In this document: positions 28,921-38,458 of the stretch, in pieces
How the letters are laid out: every line of letters begins with the position of its first letter
Position numbering within the stretch: the first letter of the stretch is position 1
Assembly: GCF_000741535.1 (NCBI RefSeq)
Contig: NZ_JGYQ01000006.1
Span: 1 to 64,000 of the forward strand
Length of the DNA: 64,000 nucleotides
Direction: 5' to 3'
DNA from: Bifidobacterium boum
GTDB lineage: Bacteria; Actinomycetota; Actinomycetes; Actinomycetales; Bifidobacteriaceae
Position numbers and translations under genes: made by a program
The notes under the pieces: generated by a model
The model's input: only the letters and a program-made list of their open reading frames with translations
Told to the model about the DNA's origin: nothing
Database searches by the model: none

Positions 28921-30048
28921 TCAGTCCACCCAGTCCTCGACCTTCGCAGCCTTGACCGGATCATACGTGTCCGGTTCCACGACAATATCCAGCGTGTAAT
29001 ACGGAATGGCTGCACGCAGCTGCTCCTCGAGCCGGTTGATCGCGGCGGCGTCATCCAGCTCCGTCTCGTTGCGGAACTGCACTTTAAGCAGCACAAGAAT
29101 ACGCTTTTCGGACAAATGCATGGCGGCAGGATCTGCGAGCACCCGTTCAACATCAGGATTATCCGCCAACACCTGCGTGATCACACGATACGTGTGGTCG
29201 CTCGCGCCCTCACCGATCAGCAGCGACGCAACCTGCGCGCCCAACAGCAACGCGCCCACAATCAACAGGACGCCAATGCTCGTGCCGCCGATGGCATCCC
29301 AGATCTCGTCGCCGGTAAGAATCGCGAGCAGCGAGCCGAGAAACGCGAAGGCAAGACCCACCACGGCAAGCGTGTCCTCGGCAAGTACGACCGCCAAATC
29401 ACTGGACTTGGTACCTTTCCAGAACTTGATGAGGCTGAACGGACCCGGATCATGCGTCTCCTCGAAGCGTTCCTTCGCCTCCTTGATACCGTTGTGCAGG
29501 CTCCACGCCTCAATCGCCGCGCAAATCACAGTCACGACCAGCACGATGGCCATACTGTGCGTATCCACGGCATGCGCTTGCGGCCCGCCGGATACGACTT
29601 CGCGGATTTTCGCGATGGATTCGCTCGCCGAATACACGCCGCCGATGGCGAACAGGGAGACCGCCACAATGAAGGAGGCGAGATACCGCGCCCGGGACCA
29701 GCCCAGCGGATGCTTGCGGCTCGGCGGCCGATGCGACAGCTTGTTGCCGATAATCAGCGTGAGTTCGTTGCCGGAATCGGCGAGACTGTGCACGCTTTCA
29801 GACAGCATCGAGGCTGAATGCGTGATCATGAACACCACGAATTTCACGACCGCAACCATCACATTCGCCAGCAGCGCGGCGATGACGGCGATGCCGATGT
29901 TCGCATTGTGTTTTTCGGTGCCGTCCGGGGCGAGATCATGGTTCATGGCGGCGTTGCCGTTGGACTGCGGCCGGTTGCGTGGCACGTCGTGCGCAATGTC
30001 TGCGGCAGGTGTCCGTTGCCCGTCATGTTGACGCTCTTGTGTGGTCAT
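28921..30048 (-). CDS. Cation diffusion facilitator (CDF) family efflux protein
   Basis: A 375-residue divalent-cation/proton antiporter, most likely for zinc, cobalt or a similar ion. Helices start at IGIAVIAALLANVMVAVVKF. The metal-site motif SASMLSESVHSLADSGNE and the second helix pair are visible, and the cytoplasmic C-terminal domain follows LIGEGASD. The N-terminal 45 residues are polar and probably disordered. Two ATGs overlap: 30048 sits 6 nt after AAGGAGG, while 30051 sits only 3 nt after it, so 30048 is used. It is divergent from jetA. Confidence 0.92.
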   Translation of the reverse strand: MTTQERQHDGQRTPAADIAHDVPRNRPQSNGNAAMNHDLAPDGTEKHNANIGIAVIAALLANVMVAVVKFVVFMITHSASMLSESVHSLADSGNELTLIIGNKLSHRPPSRKHPLGWSRARYLASFIVAVSLFAIGGVYSASESIAKIREVVSGGPQAHAVDTHSMAIVLVVTVICAAIEAWSLHNGIKEAKERFEETHDPGPFSLIKFWKGTKSSDLAVVLAEDTLAVVGLAFAFLGSLLAILTGDEIWDAIGGTSIGVLLIVGALLLGAQVASLLIGEGASDHTYRVITQVLADNPDVERVLADPAAMHLSEKRILVLLKVQFRNETELDDAAAINRLEEQLRAAIPYYTLDIVVEPDTYDPVKAAKVEDWVD

Positions 30049-30233
30049 CATCGTCCTCCTTGTCCGGCATCACGCCAGTCCGATGCCGGATCCTTGTTCC
30101 AGCATAGCCCGCAGACACTAGCGGCACCCAAGGTCTTCATGCATGTCCGATAAGATGGTGTTTGGTATGCCGCCCGCGACATTCCGAGCAACATACCGGC
30201 AGTGACGGTGCGATCAGCAGAGGAGGCGGTCTC

Positions 30234-31760
30234 GTGAGCGACGTGAGGGCGCAACTTGAACAGCTGCGGCCGGTCTACGAAACAGGCGTGCTCCGGCTCC
30301 TGTTGCGCAATCATGCGATGGCGTATGTCGCACTGCTGCGCACCTGTTTCAAACCGTTGACCGCCGAACTGCCCAAAGAAACCCTCGAAGCGCGGCTTGC
30401 CGGCGCGATCGAGGAGCTTTCCCGCAGCGGCGACTGGCAGCTCAAGGATGACGAAACCGCGCAGGACAGCGCCCATCAGACGCTTGTTGAACTCACCCGT
30501 GAAGGCGAAGGTGATTACGCGTGGCTCGCGAATTCGTTCGACCCGGCCTCACACCACTATCTGTACCGGCTGACCGCCCGCGCCCATCGCGCAATCGATG
30601 CGCTGTCCCAGCTTGAGGACACCACACGCGCCTTGTCCGGCGCCCAGGCGAATTCCATCATCATGGAGGTCGAGAACGCCCGCAAACGTCTGACGGTTGA
30701 TCCCAGCGAGCGCATCAGCCTGCTCGAAGCGGAAATCCGTGAGCGTGAGCAGGAGATTGACAAGCTTCGCGGCGGCGAGGCGGTGGAGTCGTTAACCGAC
30801 CAGGATGTCGAGGATATCATCGCTGTTGTGCACAACACCTTGCGTGGCGTACCGGTTGATTTGCATGAGCTTGCGCTTGAGGAGCGCGACAACGGCGACG
30901 TGCTGCGCCGACGGATGCAAGAGCATTCGATGAGCGTGGATGAGATTCTCACCGCGTATCATGAGCGCTACCGTCGCTCAATGCGCGAATCGGATAGTGG
31001 GCGTCGTTTTGAGGACGCATTCCAAGTGATTGTCACCGATGAGGGTCGTCGGCAGATTGATGACGCAATGCAGGATATCGCGCGAAGCCCGTATTTGCGC
31101 GGCGGGTCGAATCTGCTGCTCAATCAGGTGCGAGCGGAACTGAAGCGTATTTACGAGGGTATCGAGGATGTCCGCCATCAGATTCGCGTGTCCGATGAGG
31201 CGGTGAGCCGTCTGGTCCGGCAGCGTAGCGACACGCGGTATCGTACGGCTTTGGACACGTTTAACCGCTTGTTTGCCGCAATCAGCCGCGATATCAAGGA
31301 TGGTGAGACGTCCCCGAGCCCGTATTCGCTTGACGTGAATGCGGCCACGCTGTCCCCGTTGCCGACGCGTCCGGCCCGTCCGATGGTGTTTACGGCACCG
31401 CCAAGTCTGGACAGCCTGTCACCGGAAAACGATGATGCCACCAAGTTCGCCGAGACGGATTTGCGGACGATGGTTGAAGCGGGTGGCCCACGATTGCGCC
31501 ATATGCTGTCACTGATTGTGCGCGACCCGATTATGCGCGACGGGCGTGTGGATGTTGCGGCGAGTTTCAACCAGCTGGATGCTTCGGAGCGACGGGAAAG
31601 TGAACTCATCGGCTTTCTGGGTGCGTTGCGTGTGGATGATGCCGGACAGTTCGCGCGGTGGCGTTGCGTTTCGGCGAACGGCACGACACGCGTGTGGCGA
31701 ACCCGTCCGGTTCTTGCCGACACCGATACGCTGCGCGGGATTATCGAGGAGGACGCATGA
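30234..31760 (+). CDS. jetA: Wadjet type I component JetA (DUF3375)
   Basis: A 508-residue protein, kleisin/MukF-like in the Wadjet complex. N-terminal winged-helix-like region (LEQLRPVYETGVLRLLLRN), long helices about residues 130-190 (RISLLEAEIREREQEIDKLRGG) and a C-terminal helical domain match DUF3375. Wadjet is an SMC-family machine that extrudes small circular DNA and cleaves it, blocking plasmids. Start is GTG 30234 with AGAGGAGG upstream; the ATG at 30162 lacks a ribosome site. First gene of an operon whose remaining members follow with 30 bp or with overlaps. Confidence 0.92.
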   Translation: MSDVRAQLEQLRPVYETGVLRLLLRNHAMAYVALLRTCFKPLTAELPKETLEARLAGAIEELSRSGDWQLKDDETAQDSAHQTLVELTREGEGDYAWLANSFDPASHHYLYRLTARAHRAIDALSQLEDTTRALSGAQANSIIMEVENARKRLTVDPSERISLLEAEIREREQEIDKLRGGEAVESLTDQDVEDIIAVVHNTLRGVPVDLHELALEERDNGDVLRRRMQEHSMSVDEILTAYHERYRRSMRESDSGRRFEDAFQVIVTDEGRRQIDDAMQDIARSPYLRGGSNLLLNQVRAELKRIYEGIEDVRHQIRVSDEAVSRLVRQRSDTRYRTALDTFNRLFAAISRDIKDGETSPSPYSLDVNAATLSPLPTRPARPMVFTAPPSLDSLSPENDDATKFAETDLRTMVEAGGPRLRHMLSLIVRDPIMRDGRVDVAASFNQLDASERRESELIGFLGALRVDDAGQFARWRCVSANGTTRVWRTRPVLADTDTLRGIIEEDA

Positions 31761-31790
31761 CGTTGGAACAATCAAGGAAAGAGCGGGCAT

Positions 31791-32543
31791 ATGGCCGATG
31801 ATATTGCCGATATGATGGCTGATTTGGGTGCATCGAACATGTCTGGCGCGGTTACGGAAGATATGCCCGCGCCCTCGGCGGATGCGACCGCCGACCCTGC
31901 GGATAATCCGCATGCGCTGTTTCCCGGGGATACGAGCACGATGGATATCGACGCGCGTACGGTTGCCATCAAGCTCAAACGCAATCGGTTCATCACTGGT
32001 GACACTTACGAGATGGCGCTCGACCATGTGGACGAGATACGGCAGTCATTGAACAATGATCTGCTGGAACTGGTGGATATTCCGCGATATCGGGTGATGT
32101 ATGCCCGTCCGGTGTTGGCGGAAGACCTGGGGGCGCGCGCTTTGAAAACCCGCGCATCGTTGACGCGCGAGGAAGCGGCGATGCTGGCGCTGCTGCGCAT
32201 CCGTGTGCTCGGGTATGAGAGCGCACGCGAACCGTCTGAAAACTGGATTATCAGCATTGATGAAATCCGTGCCGCCCTGACCACGGGCGCCGGGTGGCTT
32301 GCCGCACGCAACGATGAGGAAGGCGTGATGAAACGTATCAACAGTGCGATTACGCGGTGCACCAGCAACGGGTATCTTGCCGCTGTCGAAGGCACTGACG
32401 ACATGTACCGTATTACGCCGCTGGTGCCGGCCGTGCTCACCACCGAACTCGCCGGACAGTGGCTGGATGATACGCGAAGCGGGAACGATCAGCATCAATC
32501 GGATGATACCGTACGCGACGATGAGGAAACGAGGCTCTCATGA
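31791..32543 (+). CDS. jetB: Wadjet type I component JetB (DUF4194)
   Basis: A 250-residue protein of the DUF4194 family, the MukE/KITE-like partner in the SMC complex. The first ~50 residues are acidic and probably flexible. The winged-helix core follows, with LTREEAAMLALLRIR and ENWIISIDEI as family-like blocks. It starts 30 bp after jetA behind AAGGAAAG, and its stop overlaps the jetC start as ATGA, implying coupled translation. Confidence 0.9.
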   Translation: MADDIADMMADLGASNMSGAVTEDMPAPSADATADPADNPHALFPGDTSTMDIDARTVAIKLKRNRFITGDTYEMALDHVDEIRQSLNNDLLELVDIPRYRVMYARPVLAEDLGARALKTRASLTREEAAMLALLRIRVLGYESAREPSENWIISIDEIRAALTTGAGWLAARNDEEGVMKRINSAITRCTSNGYLAAVEGTDDMYRITPLVPAVLTTELAGQWLDDTRSGNDQHQSDDTVRDDEETRLS

Positions 32544-35500
32544 CCGACGACGCACTCATGGCTGACCATTGGATGCTTGCCAGCCGCCAGCTGATCAACT
32601 GGGGGTCGTACGAGGGCTACCACGTGTTCCGCCCCTCCATGGATCCGGGCATGCCGATCACGCTCCTTGCCGGGGCGAGCGAGTCCGGCAAATCCACGCT
32701 GGTGGACGCCCAGAACTCCCTGCTCTACCCTGCCGGCACGGCATTCAACAAGGCTTCGAATTCCGGGCGTTCCGAACGCAGCGATTACACGTATCTGCGT
32801 GGTATGACCGCTGTGGCCGACGACACGGACGGCGGGACAGCCGTATATTTGCGCGGTTCGGCTCAGGACGGATCGCCGACCGCGGTGTGGGGCGCCATCG
32901 TGGACACGTACGTGAATCGTATGGGTGGAGAGACGTTGTCCTGCGCGAAATTCCTGTACCTGTCCCCCGGCGACGAGCGCGGTAATGTGCGCCGTCAATA
33001 CGTGTCATGGAACCATGAGATCGACCCGCGTAAGATGGACGGCTACCGCTCTTCGCCGTTCACCGCCGACCAGTTGCGCACCGTCTATCCCGGTTGCGCG
33101 GTGTATTCGAACGCCGAGAATTTCCACGAATCCGTGTGGACGCGTATGGGGTTGACGGCCGCCGCCTGCCGGCTGCTGTACAAAATCCAGTCGGCGGACG
33201 CCCCCTCGCGGCTTGACGACATTTTCAAACAGGGTGTGCTTGACGTTCCTCACGCGTTGACCAAAGCACGCGAAGCGGTGGAGGATTACGACCGGTACGA
33301 CGAGAACTTCCGCAGCATGGAAGAAAACGCCCGCCAAATGGACGCTTTGCGTGAAATCCGTGACGAATACGCCGAATACCACGCCATGCAAGAGCAGGCG
33401 AGAGACCTCAGCGTCGCCGATCCGCAGGATGACGCCGGGCGGAACACGCTCAACACGTGGGTACTGTCTAAACTGGCCGTCAGCGTGCGTGAACAGTTGC
33501 CGCAGGACCGCACCACGCTCGAGCACCAGCAAGAGCAGTATCGCAAAGCCGAAACGACAGTCGACGCGTTGCAGCGTGAGCTCGACCACATCAAGGATGC
33601 GATGCACGACAAGGGCGGTGACACGCTCGCCCGCATGGAAAACGACTATGCGCAAGCGCAGAAGGAACTCGATCAGGTACGCCATACGGCAATCCGTCTT
33701 CGTCAAGCCTTCAGCAAGGTGGACGAGCCCATGCCCCAGTCCGAAACGTCATGGGAGCAACGCCAGCAGGAAGCGCAGGATTTCATCGACAACGCCGACC
33801 GGCAACGCGATGACCTGTGGCGACAGCGGGAAGCGTACGTAACCCGCCGCAACACCATCACCAGTCAGCTTGACCCCATCAAGCAGGATTTCGAACGGCA
33901 GAGCCGCAAACGCACCCGTATCACGCAAGATATGGAAGACGATCGCGCCGCCATCGCACAAGCGACCGGGCTGACCGAACGCGATCTGCCATACGTCGCC
34001 GAACTCATGGACGTGCGCAAAAACGACGAACAGTGGCGTACCGCCATGAATGTGGCATACGCGCCCATCGCGCAAACCATTCTGGTCGACTGCCGGCACG
34101 AACAGGGGTTCGCACACAAAGTCAGCACCATCGACCCGTCAACCATGTCCCGGCGCACATGGCAGTTCATCGATATCGACACCACCCGCGACAACGACCA
34201 GACCGCCACAACCGACGAAAGCAGATTGTCCGGGAAACTGCGGTTCCGCGAGGATTCCCCGTCCCTCGGGTGGTTGCGCGAGCAAACCACGTCACGCCGG
34301 CTTGACGCACTCTGCGTCCAAACCATCGATGACGGGAACACCGCACGGCAAATCCAACCGGACGGACAGATCAAAGCCGGCCAACGCGGCTCATACGGCA
34401 ACAAGAACATCCGCAATATCATCGGTTTCGCCGATGAAACGTATCTGCAAGGGCTCAAACGCCAGATCGACCGCCTGACCGAACAGCTCAGGCAATGCGA
34501 ACTGGATGGTCAGGACATCAAACGGCAGCAAGACCATATGGACGAGCTGCGGGCACTATCCACCCAAATCGTCGACCTGCCGTGGGCGCAAATCGACGAA
34601 GCCGGCGTCACCGCGAAAGTAGAGCGTCTTGAGCGCGATATCGACGCGATGCGCAACAACCCGGAACTCGCCAAACTCGTCGAACGGCGCGAACAGACAC
34701 AGCATGCGCTCGACAATGCGATGACATCCCAAGTGAACGCCAAATTCGAGGCGGATCGCACGCAGCAGATCATCGACGCCACCAAAACGTGGCTGCGCGA
34801 GCACGCCGAGCATATCGTCGAACCCGCCGCCTTGCCGCCACTGCCCGACACCGTCACTGACACACTCAATTCAACCTACGATGCGGCAACCGGCACGGCA
34901 GGAGACAATCTCGCCCATATCACCGTCATGCCATCCCGGTCGGGCACTCGGCGGTTTGATGAACGCGTGCTGGGAGCCGTCAGCAGCGCTCTGGCCAAAC
35001 GCATCGGCGAGACATCCGCACAAGCCGCCAAAACGCGTACCGCAGTAGAACGGCGGATGGCCGACTACCTGTCCCGCTGGGACGCCGACGACACGACCGT
35101 CACCCCCACCGTGGACGACTACCGGTATTACGAAGACGAGTTGGCCGACCTCTCACAGATTGTGGCGCACGCGGCCACGCCGGAGGAAATCGCCAACAGC
35201 GTGCGCAAAATCGCGCTTGACTTCGACGAACTGAGCATGAATCTCGACGATGACCAGCGCGAAGTACGCAACCAGCTTGACCGCATCAACGAGATGTTGC
35301 GCGGCCAACAGTTCGGTCCCCGTCATGGCAGCCTCACACTTGACGTCACCATCAAGCCGCAAAGCACGACATTCAGCGGTACGCTGCGCCGCATCATCGA
35401 GCAGCTCAACGCATGGCAGGCGGAGCAGCCCACCGCAGGCAGCGCGAACGGCAGCGAAGCACGGCGCGCATTCAACAGTTGCAAACCGATGATCGACCTG

Positions 35501-36034
35501 CTGCGCAGCGAACTGAGTAAAGTCCGCGACACCGCGGGAATCCGCCAGTATGGCGCCCGGGATCTCGATTCCCGTGCCCGTAGTTCCTTCTACGCGGTCG
35601 TCCACCATGATGACGGTCCGGATGAACGCATCTCCTCGACCGGCGGCAAATCCGGCGGTGCGTTGCAGGAGCTCACGTCGTTCGTGTACGGCGCCGCACT
35701 CATCTATCTGCTCGGCGGCGATATCAGCGGCCACCCCACCTACACCACGCTGTTCCTTGACGAAGCGTTGATCAAGGCGGATGGCCGGTATACGCAACGC
35801 GCACTCAACGTGCTGCCCCAGCTGGGATTCCAGGTCATCGTGTCCGCCCCGGAAAGCAAAACCGGTGAAATCCTCGAGATGGCGACACGCGGCTACGTGG
35901 TGATGAAAGACGAGACCCAGCATTCGCATTTGCAAGAGCTTGACTTGGTCGGTGCACATGCGGATGGCGGAGCGTTCGACGGACCTTCGGCAGGCTCTGC
36001 CCGGCCTGTGGGGCTGCCGGCCGAGGCACACTGA
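32540..36034 (+). CDS. jetC: Wadjet type I component JetC (SMC/MukB-like ATPase)
   Basis: A 1164-residue SMC-type motor. Walker A is GASESGKST (about residues 47-55). Long coiled coils run about 270-430 and 650-790 with a hinge-like domain between. The C-terminal head has the signature STGGKSGGALQEL (about 1033) followed by Walker B TLFLDEALIKAD. It forms ATP-dependent loops on DNA with JetA and JetB. All catalytic motifs look intact. The start overlaps the jetB stop (ATGA), and its stop overlaps the jetD start (TGATG). Confidence 0.93.
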   Translation: MTDDALMADHWMLASRQLINWGSYEGYHVFRPSMDPGMPITLLAGASESGKSTLVDAQNSLLYPAGTAFNKASNSGRSERSDYTYLRGMTAVADDTDGGTAVYLRGSAQDGSPTAVWGAIVDTYVNRMGGETLSCAKFLYLSPGDERGNVRRQYVSWNHEIDPRKMDGYRSSPFTADQLRTVYPGCAVYSNAENFHESVWTRMGLTAAACRLLYKIQSADAPSRLDDIFKQGVLDVPHALTKAREAVEDYDRYDENFRSMEENARQMDALREIRDEYAEYHAMQEQARDLSVADPQDDAGRNTLNTWVLSKLAVSVREQLPQDRTTLEHQQEQYRKAETTVDALQRELDHIKDAMHDKGGDTLARMENDYAQAQKELDQVRHTAIRLRQAFSKVDEPMPQSETSWEQRQQEAQDFIDNADRQRDDLWRQREAYVTRRNTITSQLDPIKQDFERQSRKRTRITQDMEDDRAAIAQATGLTERDLPYVAELMDVRKNDEQWRTAMNVAYAPIAQTILVDCRHEQGFAHKVSTIDPSTMSRRTWQFIDIDTTRDNDQTATTDESRLSGKLRFREDSPSLGWLREQTTSRRLDALCVQTIDDGNTARQIQPDGQIKAGQRGSYGNKNIRNIIGFADETYLQGLKRQIDRLTEQLRQCELDGQDIKRQQDHMDELRALSTQIVDLPWAQIDEAGVTAKVERLERDIDAMRNNPELAKLVERREQTQHALDNAMTSQVNAKFEADRTQQIIDATKTWLREHAEHIVEPAALPPLPDTVTDTLNSTYDAATGTAGDNLAHITVMPSRSGTRRFDERVLGAVSSALAKRIGETSAQAAKTRTAVERRMADYLSRWDADDTTVTPTVDDYRYYEDELADLSQIVAHAATPEEIANSVRKIALDFDELSMNLDDDQREVRNQLDRINEMLRGQQFGPRHGSLTLDVTIKPQSTTFSGTLRRIIEQLNAWQAEQPTAGSANGSEARRAFNSCKPMIDLLRSELSKVRDTAGIRQYGARDLDSRARSSFYAVVHHDDGPDERISSTGGKSGGALQELTSFVYGAALIYLLGGDISGHPTYTTLFLDEALIKADGRYTQRALNVLPQLGFQVIVSAPESKTGEILEMATRGYVVMKDETQHSHLQELDLVGAHADGGAFDGPSAGSARPVGLPAEAH

Positions 36035-37266
36035 TGGCAGGCTCACGCGCACGCGGTGTGGATGCGGCGAAGGCGCCTGAGGCGATCCGCAGCATCGTCA
36101 CGACATATCTGGCGCGACACCGGTACGATGCCGTGCCGTCGTGGCCATTGATGTTCGCCGTACGATGGCCGGATCAGCGCACGCTGACCACTCAAGCGCC
36201 CGACTGGCATCGGGCCAATAACGCGTTGCGTGAGTGGGCACGACGATGTGGGTGCGCGACCACGGAAAAGAACCGGCTTATGGTCACGCCTGTGGCGTTG
36301 ATTGACACGGTCGGCGTAACCGATGAGGCTACAGCACTGCGCGTGGTCGGCGAGCAAGCGGCACGACGGTATCGCAAGGCGCGTGAGCGCATCGACCGGC
36401 TGGTCGGCGAACTCGATGTTTCACGTGAAACGGCATCGGTTGTAGCGAATATGCTGGACCGTGAATCCGATACGGATTTCACCTTGGCCATCCAAGCCGC
36501 ACGGTTTTTCGCCACACATGACGTCTCAGGCATGACCCCGCGGCAGGTTCCACTCGCCGGATTCAGCGCCAAATGGCTCGATCAGACGCACGCCAAGCGG
36601 CGTGGCGCAATATGCACGTTATGCGGCAAAGATTCACTGGGACTATCCGAACGATCGGTGGAATTACGCATGCGGTGGCTCGACCCGGCGGACGCGGACA
36701 AGCCGGAGATGATAGTCACCACGCCGTGGCAGCCGGGCGGCGAGCGTGATATCTGCTACGTCATCATCGTGGAAAATAAGGATACATATCTGGGTATGCC
36801 GGCCATCAGAGACGGACTGTGCGTGTGGGGCGCCGGCAGGGCGATCGAAGCATCGATATCACTGCTGCCATGGCTGGGCACGTCCGGCGAACGCGGCCGC
36901 GAAACGCACGTCGTGTATTGGGGCGACATGGATGCCGACGGCCTGGAAATCCTCGATGCCGTGCGACAAGCCGGGGTACGCTGCCGGTCGCTGTTCATGG
37001 ATGCGGAAGCTTACCGGCGCTACTCGTGGTTCGGGACGAATCTCAAGCCAGAAGGCACTCCTATCGCTACGCGCGAACCCAAAGCGACACCCATGCTCGA
37101 CCCCAGTGAACGCGAACTGTACCAGATGGTCTGCGGCGCCGACCCTTCCAGCCGCCCCGACCATCTTCGTGTCGAACAGGAGCGCATCCCGCTTGCCGAT
37201 GCCGTCAACGCGCTACACTCATTAGGCTGGCCGATTATCAACCATCAACACCAGGAGACACGATGA
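36034..37266 (+). CDS. jetD: Wadjet type I component JetD (DUF3322-DUF2220, Toprim nuclease)
   Basis: A 410-residue nuclease subunit. The N-terminal half (about 1-190) is DUF3322 and the C-terminal half DUF2220, related to the Toprim subunit of topoisomerase VI. Toprim acidic residues are visible in VENKDTYLGMP and YWGDMDADGLEIL, so the cleavage site appears intact. It cuts plasmid DNA once the JetABC motor has stalled on a small circle. The gene carries a parS-like palindrome at 36417-36432. Its stop overlaps the following peroxiredoxin start (ATGA). Confidence 0.92.
   Translation: MAGSRARGVDAAKAPEAIRSIVTTYLARHRYDAVPSWPLMFAVRWPDQRTLTTQAPDWHRANNALREWARRCGCATTEKNRLMVTPVALIDTVGVTDEATALRVVGEQAARRYRKARERIDRLVGELDVSRETASVVANMLDRESDTDFTLAIQAARFFATHDVSGMTPRQVPLAGFSAKWLDQTHAKRRGAICTLCGKDSLGLSERSVELRMRWLDPADADKPEMIVTTPWQPGGERDICYVIIVENKDTYLGMPAIRDGLCVWGAGRAIEASISLLPWLGTSGERGRETHVVYWGDMDADGLEILDAVRQAGVRCRSLFMDAEAYRRYSWFGTNLKPEGTPIATREPKATPMLDPSERELYQMVCGADPSSRPDHLRVEQERIPLADAVNALHSLGWPIINHQHQETR
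36417..36432. other. parS-like site inside jetD
   Basis: TGTTTCACGTGAAACG matches the parS consensus at 15 of 16 positions. It encodes residues DVSRETA in JetD. With the site in gluQ it makes two in 20 kb. Confidence 0.78.
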
Positions 37267-37778
37267 CAGACAACGCGCACCAGGAGTCCATACGGCTTGA
37301 GGCCGGGCAGACTGCCCCGGATTTCACACTTCCCAGCGACACGGGCGATACCGTCACCTTGTCCGCACTGCGGGGCAAGAACATCGTCCTATATTTCTAT
37401 CCGGCGGCGATGACACCCGGATGTACGACGGAAGCCTGCGATTTTCGTGACAATCTTGCACGTTTGTCAGCTCGAGGATTCACCGTGCTCGGTGTGTCGA
37501 AGGATCCGCTCGACAAGCTTGCGCGATTCCGCGAACGCGACCATCTGACGTTCCCGCTGCTGTCGGATCCCGATCTGGCAGTGCATCGCCTATACGGCGC
37601 GTACGGCGAGAAGAATCTGTATGGCAAAGTGCGTTTGGGAGTGATTCGTTCGACGTTCGTGATTGACGGCGACGGCATCATCCGTGTCGCAAAATACAAT
37701 GTGCGGGCGAAAGGGCATGTCGATTCCCTGCTGCGGGCGCTCGACAAGCTTGATGATCAGGAGTGGATGCAGCGGTAA
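37263..37778 (+). CDS. bcp: Bcp/PrxQ-type peroxiredoxin
   Basis: A 171-residue thiol peroxidase that reduces hydrogen peroxide and organic peroxides. The thioredoxin fold begins at APDFTLPSDTGDTVTLS. The peroxidatic cysteine is in MTPGCTTEACDF, with the second cysteine five residues later as in PrxQ. The ATG overlaps the jetD stop by 4 bp, so it is translated with the Wadjet operon. A defence role is possible, but simple read-through linkage is just as likely. Confidence 0.93.
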   Translation: MTDNAHQESIRLEAGQTAPDFTLPSDTGDTVTLSALRGKNIVLYFYPAAMTPGCTTEACDFRDNLARLSARGFTVLGVSKDPLDKLARFRERDHLTFPLLSDPDLAVHRLYGAYGEKNLYGKVRLGVIRSTFVIDGDGIIRVAKYNVRAKGHVDSLLRALDKLDDQEWMQR

Positions 37779-37831: not shown

Positions 37832-38458
37832 TCACGCCCAGTGGAAAAGCGAAACCCCGCAGCGTGAACGGCAGTAGGCGTTCCCCAGCCATGTGTGCCG
37901 CGAGTTCGGCCACACCGCTCCCAGTCTCGGGGCATTCTGGCTCATCCAGATGCTGGGGGCGCGGCCGTCGGCGCTGCGAGAGCCGAGCAGGTTAAAGCCG
38001 TTCTTCTCCACCAGCCAATCGGGATGCTGGGTGGCGATGGCGAGCCCCTCTTCAAGCGTGAGCGGCAGACGCTCGTCGGAGTCGATGAGTTTGCGCGCGA
38101 CATCCGGCTCACGATTGATGTATGCGGTGCCCGTATGCGGGTCGATGACCAGGTAGAACGGGCCTTCCGGCGGCTCGAAACCGTCTTGCGGCAGGAAACT
38201 GGCGATATCTCGCGGCGGCATGGTCGTGAAACCGGCCATGCGGTTGATACTGGTTCGCGCGATCAGGGATTCCGGGGAAACCAATTCACGCGTAGGTACG
38301 AGCAGAATATTCGAGCCGAGATCACTGTCTTCGAGCGCGCTGATGAGCGGACGTGCGAGGGCGCGGAATGCCTCGGCGCTCATATCAGCCACATCAGGGT
38401 AGCCAAGCGCGACAATGCGGTCGAGCTGCTTCAATGCTTCCTGCGATGCGATGGACAT
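37832..38458 (-). CDS. DUF5701 family protein
   Basis: A 208-residue soluble protein of a family found in Actinobacteria, function unknown. It has a helical N-terminal half and a conserved C-terminal half with GPFYLVIDPHTGTAYINREP, LTLEEGLAIATQHPDWL and GLGSR-like/WMSQNAPRLG/HTWLGNAYCRSRCG blocks. Start 38458 follows GGGAGGT closely; the frame stays open upstream through the repeat region to 38761, but that is probably not coding. It converges on bcp with 53 bp between. Confidence 0.75.
   Translation of the reverse strand: MSIASQEALKQLDRIVALGYPDVADMSAEAFRALARPLISALEDSDLGSNILLVPTRELVSPESLIARTSINRMAGFTTMPPRDIASFLPQDGFEPPEGPFYLVIDPHTGTAYINREPDVARKLIDSDERLPLTLEEGLAIATQHPDWLVEKNGFNLLGSRSADGRAPSIWMSQNAPRLGAVWPNSRHTWLGNAYCRSRCGVSLFHWA

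What the first reader, a model, noticed from the sequence alone, without database searches (positions are those of the whole stretch)
30234..37266. Complete type I Wadjet anti-plasmid system
jetA-jetB-jetC-jetD lie in order with 30-bp or overlapping junctions, and all visible catalytic motifs (JetC Walker A/B and signature, JetD Toprim acids) are intact. From established knowledge, Wadjet extrudes and cuts small circular DNA, so this strain may resist plasmid transformation. That is practically notable for Bifidobacterium.
Basis: partly seen in the sequence, partly recalled or inferred. Interest (0 to 1): 0.7.

Follow-up and report, generated by a model that had tools for sequence, protein, structure and literature searches.

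The report
Complete anti-plasmid Wadjet operon in Bifidobacterium
A gut Bifidobacterium carries a complete, apparently intact copy of a known four-gene machine that reels in and cuts small circular DNA; the operon is ordinary, but relatives often keep the motor genes without the cutting gene, and this strain's usual chromosome-folding gene is broken.

Summary
jetA-jetB-jetC-jetD lie at 30234-37266 with the stated junctions. All four match type I Wadjet models (PADLOC JetA1 831, JetB1 479, JetC1 1728, JetD1 578 bits); JetC and JetD match solved Wadjet/MksG proteins. ATPase and Toprim residues are intact. It is a new member of a known kind among housekeeping genes. Plasmid restriction is inferred by homology; my replication-protein survey could not test it.

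The JetC tree needs 14 changes of JetD state, and jetC without jetD looks to be under purifying selection. (2) In the window's own genome canonical smc is broken and internally deleted, so JetABC might carry chromosome work; a genus-wide link is not supported. (3) A peroxiredoxin gene overlaps the jetD stop; this adjacency is seen only in four related genomes.

The parts
30234..31760 (+). jetA, kleisin-like subunit (DUF3375), 508 aa, GTG start
   Evidence: PF11855 273.6 bits; PADLOC JetA1 831 bits; profile match to solved JetA 8q72, E 6.2e-4
31791..32543 (+). jetB, KITE-like subunit (DUF4194, MukE-like), 250 aa
   Evidence: PF13835 102.4 bits; PADLOC JetB1 479 bits; profile match to solved JetB 8dk1, E 1.4e-5
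32540..36034 (+). jetC, MukB-like SMC ATPase, 1164 aa
   Evidence: PADLOC JetC1 1728 bits; phmmer to solved JetC 8dk2 1.7e-24
32672..32698 (+). JetC Walker A, GASESGKST (aa 45-53)
   Evidence: identical in 59 of 59 JetC except the second position, A/Q/D
35633..35659 (+). JetC ABC signature region SSTGGKSGG (aa 1032-1040)
   Evidence: T-G-G-x-S-G-G in 59 of 59
35747..35782 (+). JetC Walker B TLFLDEALIKAD (aa 1070-1081)
   Evidence: D and E invariant in 59 of 59
36034..37266 (+). jetD, Toprim nuclease (DUF3322 + JetD_C), 410 aa
   Evidence: PF09983 3.8e-36, PF11795 1e-17; PADLOC JetD1 578 bits; solved MksG 8b7f 2.1e-16 and JetD 8q72 3.5e-5
36772..36774 (+). JetD Toprim glutamate E247
   Evidence: aligned with residue 248 of 8q72 JetD(E248A); invariant in 32 of 32
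36925..36933 (+). JetD Toprim DxD (D298, D300)
   Evidence: both D invariant in 32 of 32
37174..37182 (+). JetD E381 and E383 of the RxEQER stretch
   Evidence: both E invariant in 32 of 32
37263..37778 (+). bcp/PrxQ-type peroxiredoxin, 4-bp overlap with the jetD stop; probable passenger, not a Wadjet part
   Evidence: AhpC-TSA 1.2e-39; next to jetD only in G000, G008, G100, G101 by coordinates and loci
28921..30051 (-). cation efflux (CDF) transporter, divergent 5' neighbour
   Evidence: PF01545 1.8e-33; same place in the three related loci read

Best explanation
This is a complete chromosomal type I Wadjet operon (JetABCD, the same kind as MksFEBG). The JetC SMC ATPase, JetA kleisin and JetB KITE form a loop-extruding motor. 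When it has reeled in all of a small circular DNA it stalls, and the JetD Toprim nuclease cuts the enclosed bend, so small circular plasmids are lost while the large chromosome is spared. Shown here: gene order, families, intact catalytic residues, conservation. Inferred from published work on other type I systems: extrusion, size discrimination, cleavage and plasmid resistance.
For: All four subunits match type I models over nearly their full length. JetC and JetD match solved JetC and MksG/JetD chains directly, JetA and JetB weakly by profile. Catalytic residues are intact. Genes are tightly packed on one strand. jetC is under purifying selection in the clade: dN/dS 0.119 for G000/G101 and 0.100 for G008/G100. 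With this JetD as tblastn query, 10 of 72,556 PLSDB plasmid records match, none of them Bifidobacterium and none shorter than 42 kb (more distant JetD would be missed). [quoted passage not shown]
Against: No functional data for this operon. JetABC without JetD is common in the genus, so plasmid cutting cannot be the only use of the motor there. Rep-family carriage does not differ between genomes with and without intact JetD, though that test is weak.
Confidence: 0.86

Rival explanations
1. The JetABC motor has (also) become a chromosome-organising condensin, as MukBEF and MksBEF are, and JetD is an optional add-on. In this genome, where canonical smc is broken, JetABC carries part of that load.
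For: 24 of 60 genus genomes keep JetABC with no JetD detected anywhere in the genome; 14 changes on the JetC tree, 13 forced by starred branches; ATPase motifs intact in all 59 JetC examined; dN/dS 0.074-0.198 in the 12 printed pairs in which both lack JetD; own smc is broken. PMC10586767 says that P. [quoted passage not shown]
Against: JetABC is not enriched in genomes without Smc: 25 of 41 against 35 of 71, Fisher p 0.25, and 16 genomes lack both. JetD is absent less often, not more, where Smc is missing: 5 of 25 against 19 of 35, p 0.009; with broken copies counted too, 9 of 25 against 19 of 35, p 0.20; few independent events. The window's JetD is intact. scpA and scpB were not searched.
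Confidence: 0.2
2. The target is circularised phage or other mobile DNA rather than plasmids.
For: The mechanism senses small circles, so any such circle could be cut; PADLOC files it as a defence system.
Against: The experiments in the passages that I saw concern plasmids (PMC12287153, PMC10123090, PMC10586767).
Confidence: 0.08
3. The operon is a non-functional relic.
For: JetD is broken in 4 of the 36 genus genomes that have it (G001, G019, G040, G062).
Against: All four frames are open and every catalytic residue looked at is intact; low dN/dS.
Confidence: 0.04

Closest known systems
Type I Wadjet JetABCD with solved structures (8as8, 8q72, 8dk1, 8dk2; said in PMC10586767 to be from E. coli GF4-3 and P. 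aeruginosa PA14)
   Same: All four families and the catalytic residues
   Different: Distant in sequence (JetC phmmer 1.7e-24, JetD 3.5e-5); closest to PADLOC sub-profiles PDLC00446, 00492, 00509 and 00520
Corynebacterium glutamicum MksFEBG (MksG, 8b7f)
   Same: Actinobacterial homologue; MksG is the best PDB match of this JetD (2.1e-16)
   Different: No localisation or activity data here
MksBEF / MukBEF condensins
   Same: JetABC corresponds to their kleisin, KITE and SMC; the JetD-less Bifidobacterium loci have this make-up
   Different: The window's operon has an intact JetD

Membership tests
Type I Wadjet | Four adjacent genes jetA-B-C-D in order | tested here: met
Type I Wadjet | JetA DUF3375 and JetB DUF4194 | tested here: met
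   PF11855 273.6 bits, PF13835 102.4 bits, both over cut-off
Type I Wadjet | MukB-like JetC with Walker A, signature and Walker B | tested here: met
Type I Wadjet | JetD DUF3322 + JetD_C Toprim with catalytic acids | tested here: met
Type I Wadjet | Type I rather than II or III | tested here: met
   Best PADLOC models are JetA1, JetB1, JetC1, JetD1; JetD3 models reach at most 37.7 bits
Type I Wadjet | Cuts small circular DNA with ATP; lowers plasmid transformation | not testable with these tools
   needs biochemistry or genetics
MukBEF/MksBEF condensin | No associated nuclease | tested here: not met
   intact jetD follows jetC
MukBEF/MksBEF condensin | Role in chromosome organisation | not testable with these tools
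   indirect hints only, some against

The most novel reading that the evidence does not exclude
In this Bifidobacterium lineage a defence SMC complex has taken over, or shares, chromosome organisation: canonical smc has decayed while JetABC stays intact. Across the genus JetABC is a stable resident whose nuclease JetD is repeatedly shed, so condensins of the MksBEF kind are seen forming from Wadjet many times over within one genus.
Probability: 0.15. Interest if true: 0.8.

Novelty: new member of a known kind. Interest (0 to 1): 0.4.

Why it matters
An intact Wadjet operon predicts poor uptake and maintenance of small plasmids, a practical barrier to engineering this Bifidobacterium. The wider pattern (JetD absent or broken in 28 of 60 JetABC-bearing genomes; jetC without jetD under selection; smc broken in this genome) would make the proposed origin of MksBEF/MukBEF condensins from a defence system testable in closely related species.

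Tried and rejected
Defence island: of the 51 window ORFs, the four jet genes and the peroxiredoxin had their own scans, 11 short ORFs were left out, and 35 were scanned. PADLOC gave 50 families at 1e-3, of which 25 were printed: one RTasHel and 24 GajB (UvrD-helicase) models, each matched by one protein. Pfam printed 25 of 67 families, mostly housekeeping. No island seen in what was printed.

A replacement for JetD in the JetD-less loci: one search listed 58 downstream ORFs (up to three per locus, 90-700 aa); I gave 55 of them to the scans (three of 92-113 aa were dropped). PADLOC gave 22 families, none Jet; Pfam printed 25 of 40, mostly housekeeping. A JetD profile found no remnant in the 24 loci (best E 0.24), while it found the known pieces in G040 and G062. 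L101 carries a 443-aa ORF right after jetC with no Pfam family; not resolved.

JetB docking site: the N-terminal ALFxGDxGDM-like stretch is kept in JetD-less and JetD-bearing genomes alike, G068 excepted, so it does not mark release from JetD. I could not show that it is the IFDR motif named in PMC10586767; the PDB profile match does not cover it.

Plasmid carriage: Rep3_N 1 of 112, Rep_OBD 9 of 112, Rep_1 12 of 112, of which the 7 over cut-off were counted and 5 dropped. At least two Rep_OBD matches (G074, G085) lie in single-contig genomes, and the one in G069 sits beside an FtsK-like gene by my reading, so these are not clean plasmid markers.

Promoters and terminators: 4 found against 3.0 in shuffles, and 3 against 7.1.

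Full report
Observation. Pfam and PADLOC agree on JetA, JetB, JetC and JetD of type I Wadjet. In the PDB, JetC and JetD match directly; JetA and JetB do not by single sequence but do weakly by profile. NCBIfam has no hit at 1e-3 for JetA, JetB or JetD; JetC only grazes SMC_prok_B, 32.9 bits against a cut-off of 567.

Integrity. On an alignment of 59 JetC proteins over 1000 aa (G040 left out, its jetC is split), Walker A bar its second position, the signature T-G-G-x-S-G-G and the Walker B D-E are invariant. JetD E247, D298, D300, E381 and E383 are invariant in 32 JetD over 370 aa, one of which (G001) is frameshifted near its start. E247 aligns with residue 248 of the solved JetD(E248A) mutant. 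[quoted passage not shown] I take E381 and E383 to be these, from the EQE stretch aligned.

Setting. The window lies on contig C6 of a 2.17-Mb, 18-contig genome. In those three as in the window the order is CDF transporter, jetABCD, peroxiredoxin, then the minus-strand gene at 37832. Of 30 peroxiredoxin loci read (about 1.5 kb each side), these four carry JetD beside it and 26 show no JetC or JetD match; the coordinates show no other adjacency. I read it as a passenger, not a Wadjet part.

Genus survey. Of 112 genomes, JetA (PF11855) is in 60, JetC in 60, and JetD in 36, by protein and by PF09983 alike. The 24 without JetD have one open frame each covering nearly all of JetA and JetC and the body of JetB (G004 was flagged with one TGA but reads as a 1173-aa frame). 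JetD is broken in four more (G001, G019, G040, G062; in G040 jetC is split too), and in G005 it lies on another contig than jetABC. One search also flagged a stop inside JetD of G010, G021, G046 and G061, but one search finds frames of 375-397 aa there. An intact JetD with broken JetABC was not seen, but G046 is cut by a contig end and could not be judged.

Loss rather than gain. A quick JetC tree (LG+G4, 59 rows, with long branches that the tool warns of) needs 14 changes between JetD present and absent, 13 forced by starred branches; 4 of 500 shuffles need as few. JetD and JetC identities vary together (Mantel r 0.81, 0 of 2000 permutations as high; same nearest neighbour in 19 of 32), as expected of co-inheritance. 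Close sets show an intact and a broken or missing JetD side by side: G018 with G019 and G001, G060 with G040, G061 with G062, G073 with G023. Parsimony cannot by itself exclude regain.

JetABC without JetD is kept. Of 45 JetC pairs at 80% identity or more, 40 were printed; the 12 printed pairs in which both lack JetD have dN/dS 0.074-0.198, and pairs in which both have it overlap that range. Pairs share branches, and part of each branch may predate the loss. No replacement nuclease was recognised.

Beyond the genus. In 246 genomes of the class, 44 besides the window's have a strong JetA (E below 1e-50), and 22 of these 44 have a strong JetD_C (E below 1e-25); four weak JetA and six weak JetD genomes were not counted, and G199 has JetD without JetA (my count from the tables). 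Whether the other 22 lack JetD or have a divergent one was not examined.

Canonical Smc. All 112 genomes have some match to SMC_prok_B, 67 over its cut-off; by my reading Smc is missing or reduced to fragments in 41 (best E weaker than 1e-60). The tool scored only five candidates per genome. In G000 the hits are fragments on C7. Against the Smc of G100, the place in G000 with the same neighbours keeps N-terminal pieces in several frames, little but one short piece between residues 566 and 1172, and the last 53 residues; the gap shows in the DNA too. G008 has the whole protein there. G101 has no Smc above background (2.0e-7). JetABC is found in 25 of 41 Smc-less and 35 of 71 other genomes (p 0.25). 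JetD is absent in 5 of 25 and 19 of 35 (p 0.009, not corrected for kinship); absent or broken in 9 of 25 and 19 of 35 (p 0.20). On the tree only 4-5 independent pairs exist, too few for a verdict. So replacement is possible here but not supported as a rule.

Literature. PMC10586767 (passages and section 7; [quoted passage not shown] PMC10482375 (passages) reports Wadjet in 42% of Actinobacteria. PMC12287153 (passages) gives a native knock-out. A search for Wadjet with Bifidobacterium listed three papers, of which I saw passages of one and the listing of two; searches for Smc in Bifidobacterium gave 24 papers, ten listed, none of these ten with the word Bifidobacterium, and none. In these I saw no report of the genus pattern; the library lacks most subscription journals.

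Verdict. An ordinary, intact type I Wadjet. What deserves a second look is the repeated absence of JetD and the broken smc of this genome.

Noticed in passing
L144:8055-10079 (G000:C7 about 334054-336078): Canonical smc of the window's own genome is a pseudogene with frame breaks and a large internal deletion; whole in G100 and G008.
   Followed up: partly
24 loci L084-L107: jetABC without jetD in 24 of 60 JetABC-bearing Bifidobacterium genomes, beside genes such as uvrA-uvrC-aroE or mazG.
   Followed up: yes
window 37263-37778: bcp/PrxQ peroxiredoxin overlaps the jetD stop by 4 bp; this adjacency is seen only in the window and G008, G100, G101.
   Followed up: partly
L101:7588-8919: 443-aa ORF overlapping the jetC stop in a JetD-less locus (G042), no Pfam family; a candidate unknown partner.
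   Followed up: partly
G005:C47:19797-20933: jetD on a different contig from jetABC (C24): a possible in-trans nuclease or an assembly effect.
   Followed up: no
G022:C2:321169-321951: A second, divergent JetD-like stretch (34%) away from the jetABCD operon of that genome.
   Followed up: no
L119:2906-12702 (G068): Divergent jetA separated from jetBCD by about four extra ORFs.
   Followed up: no
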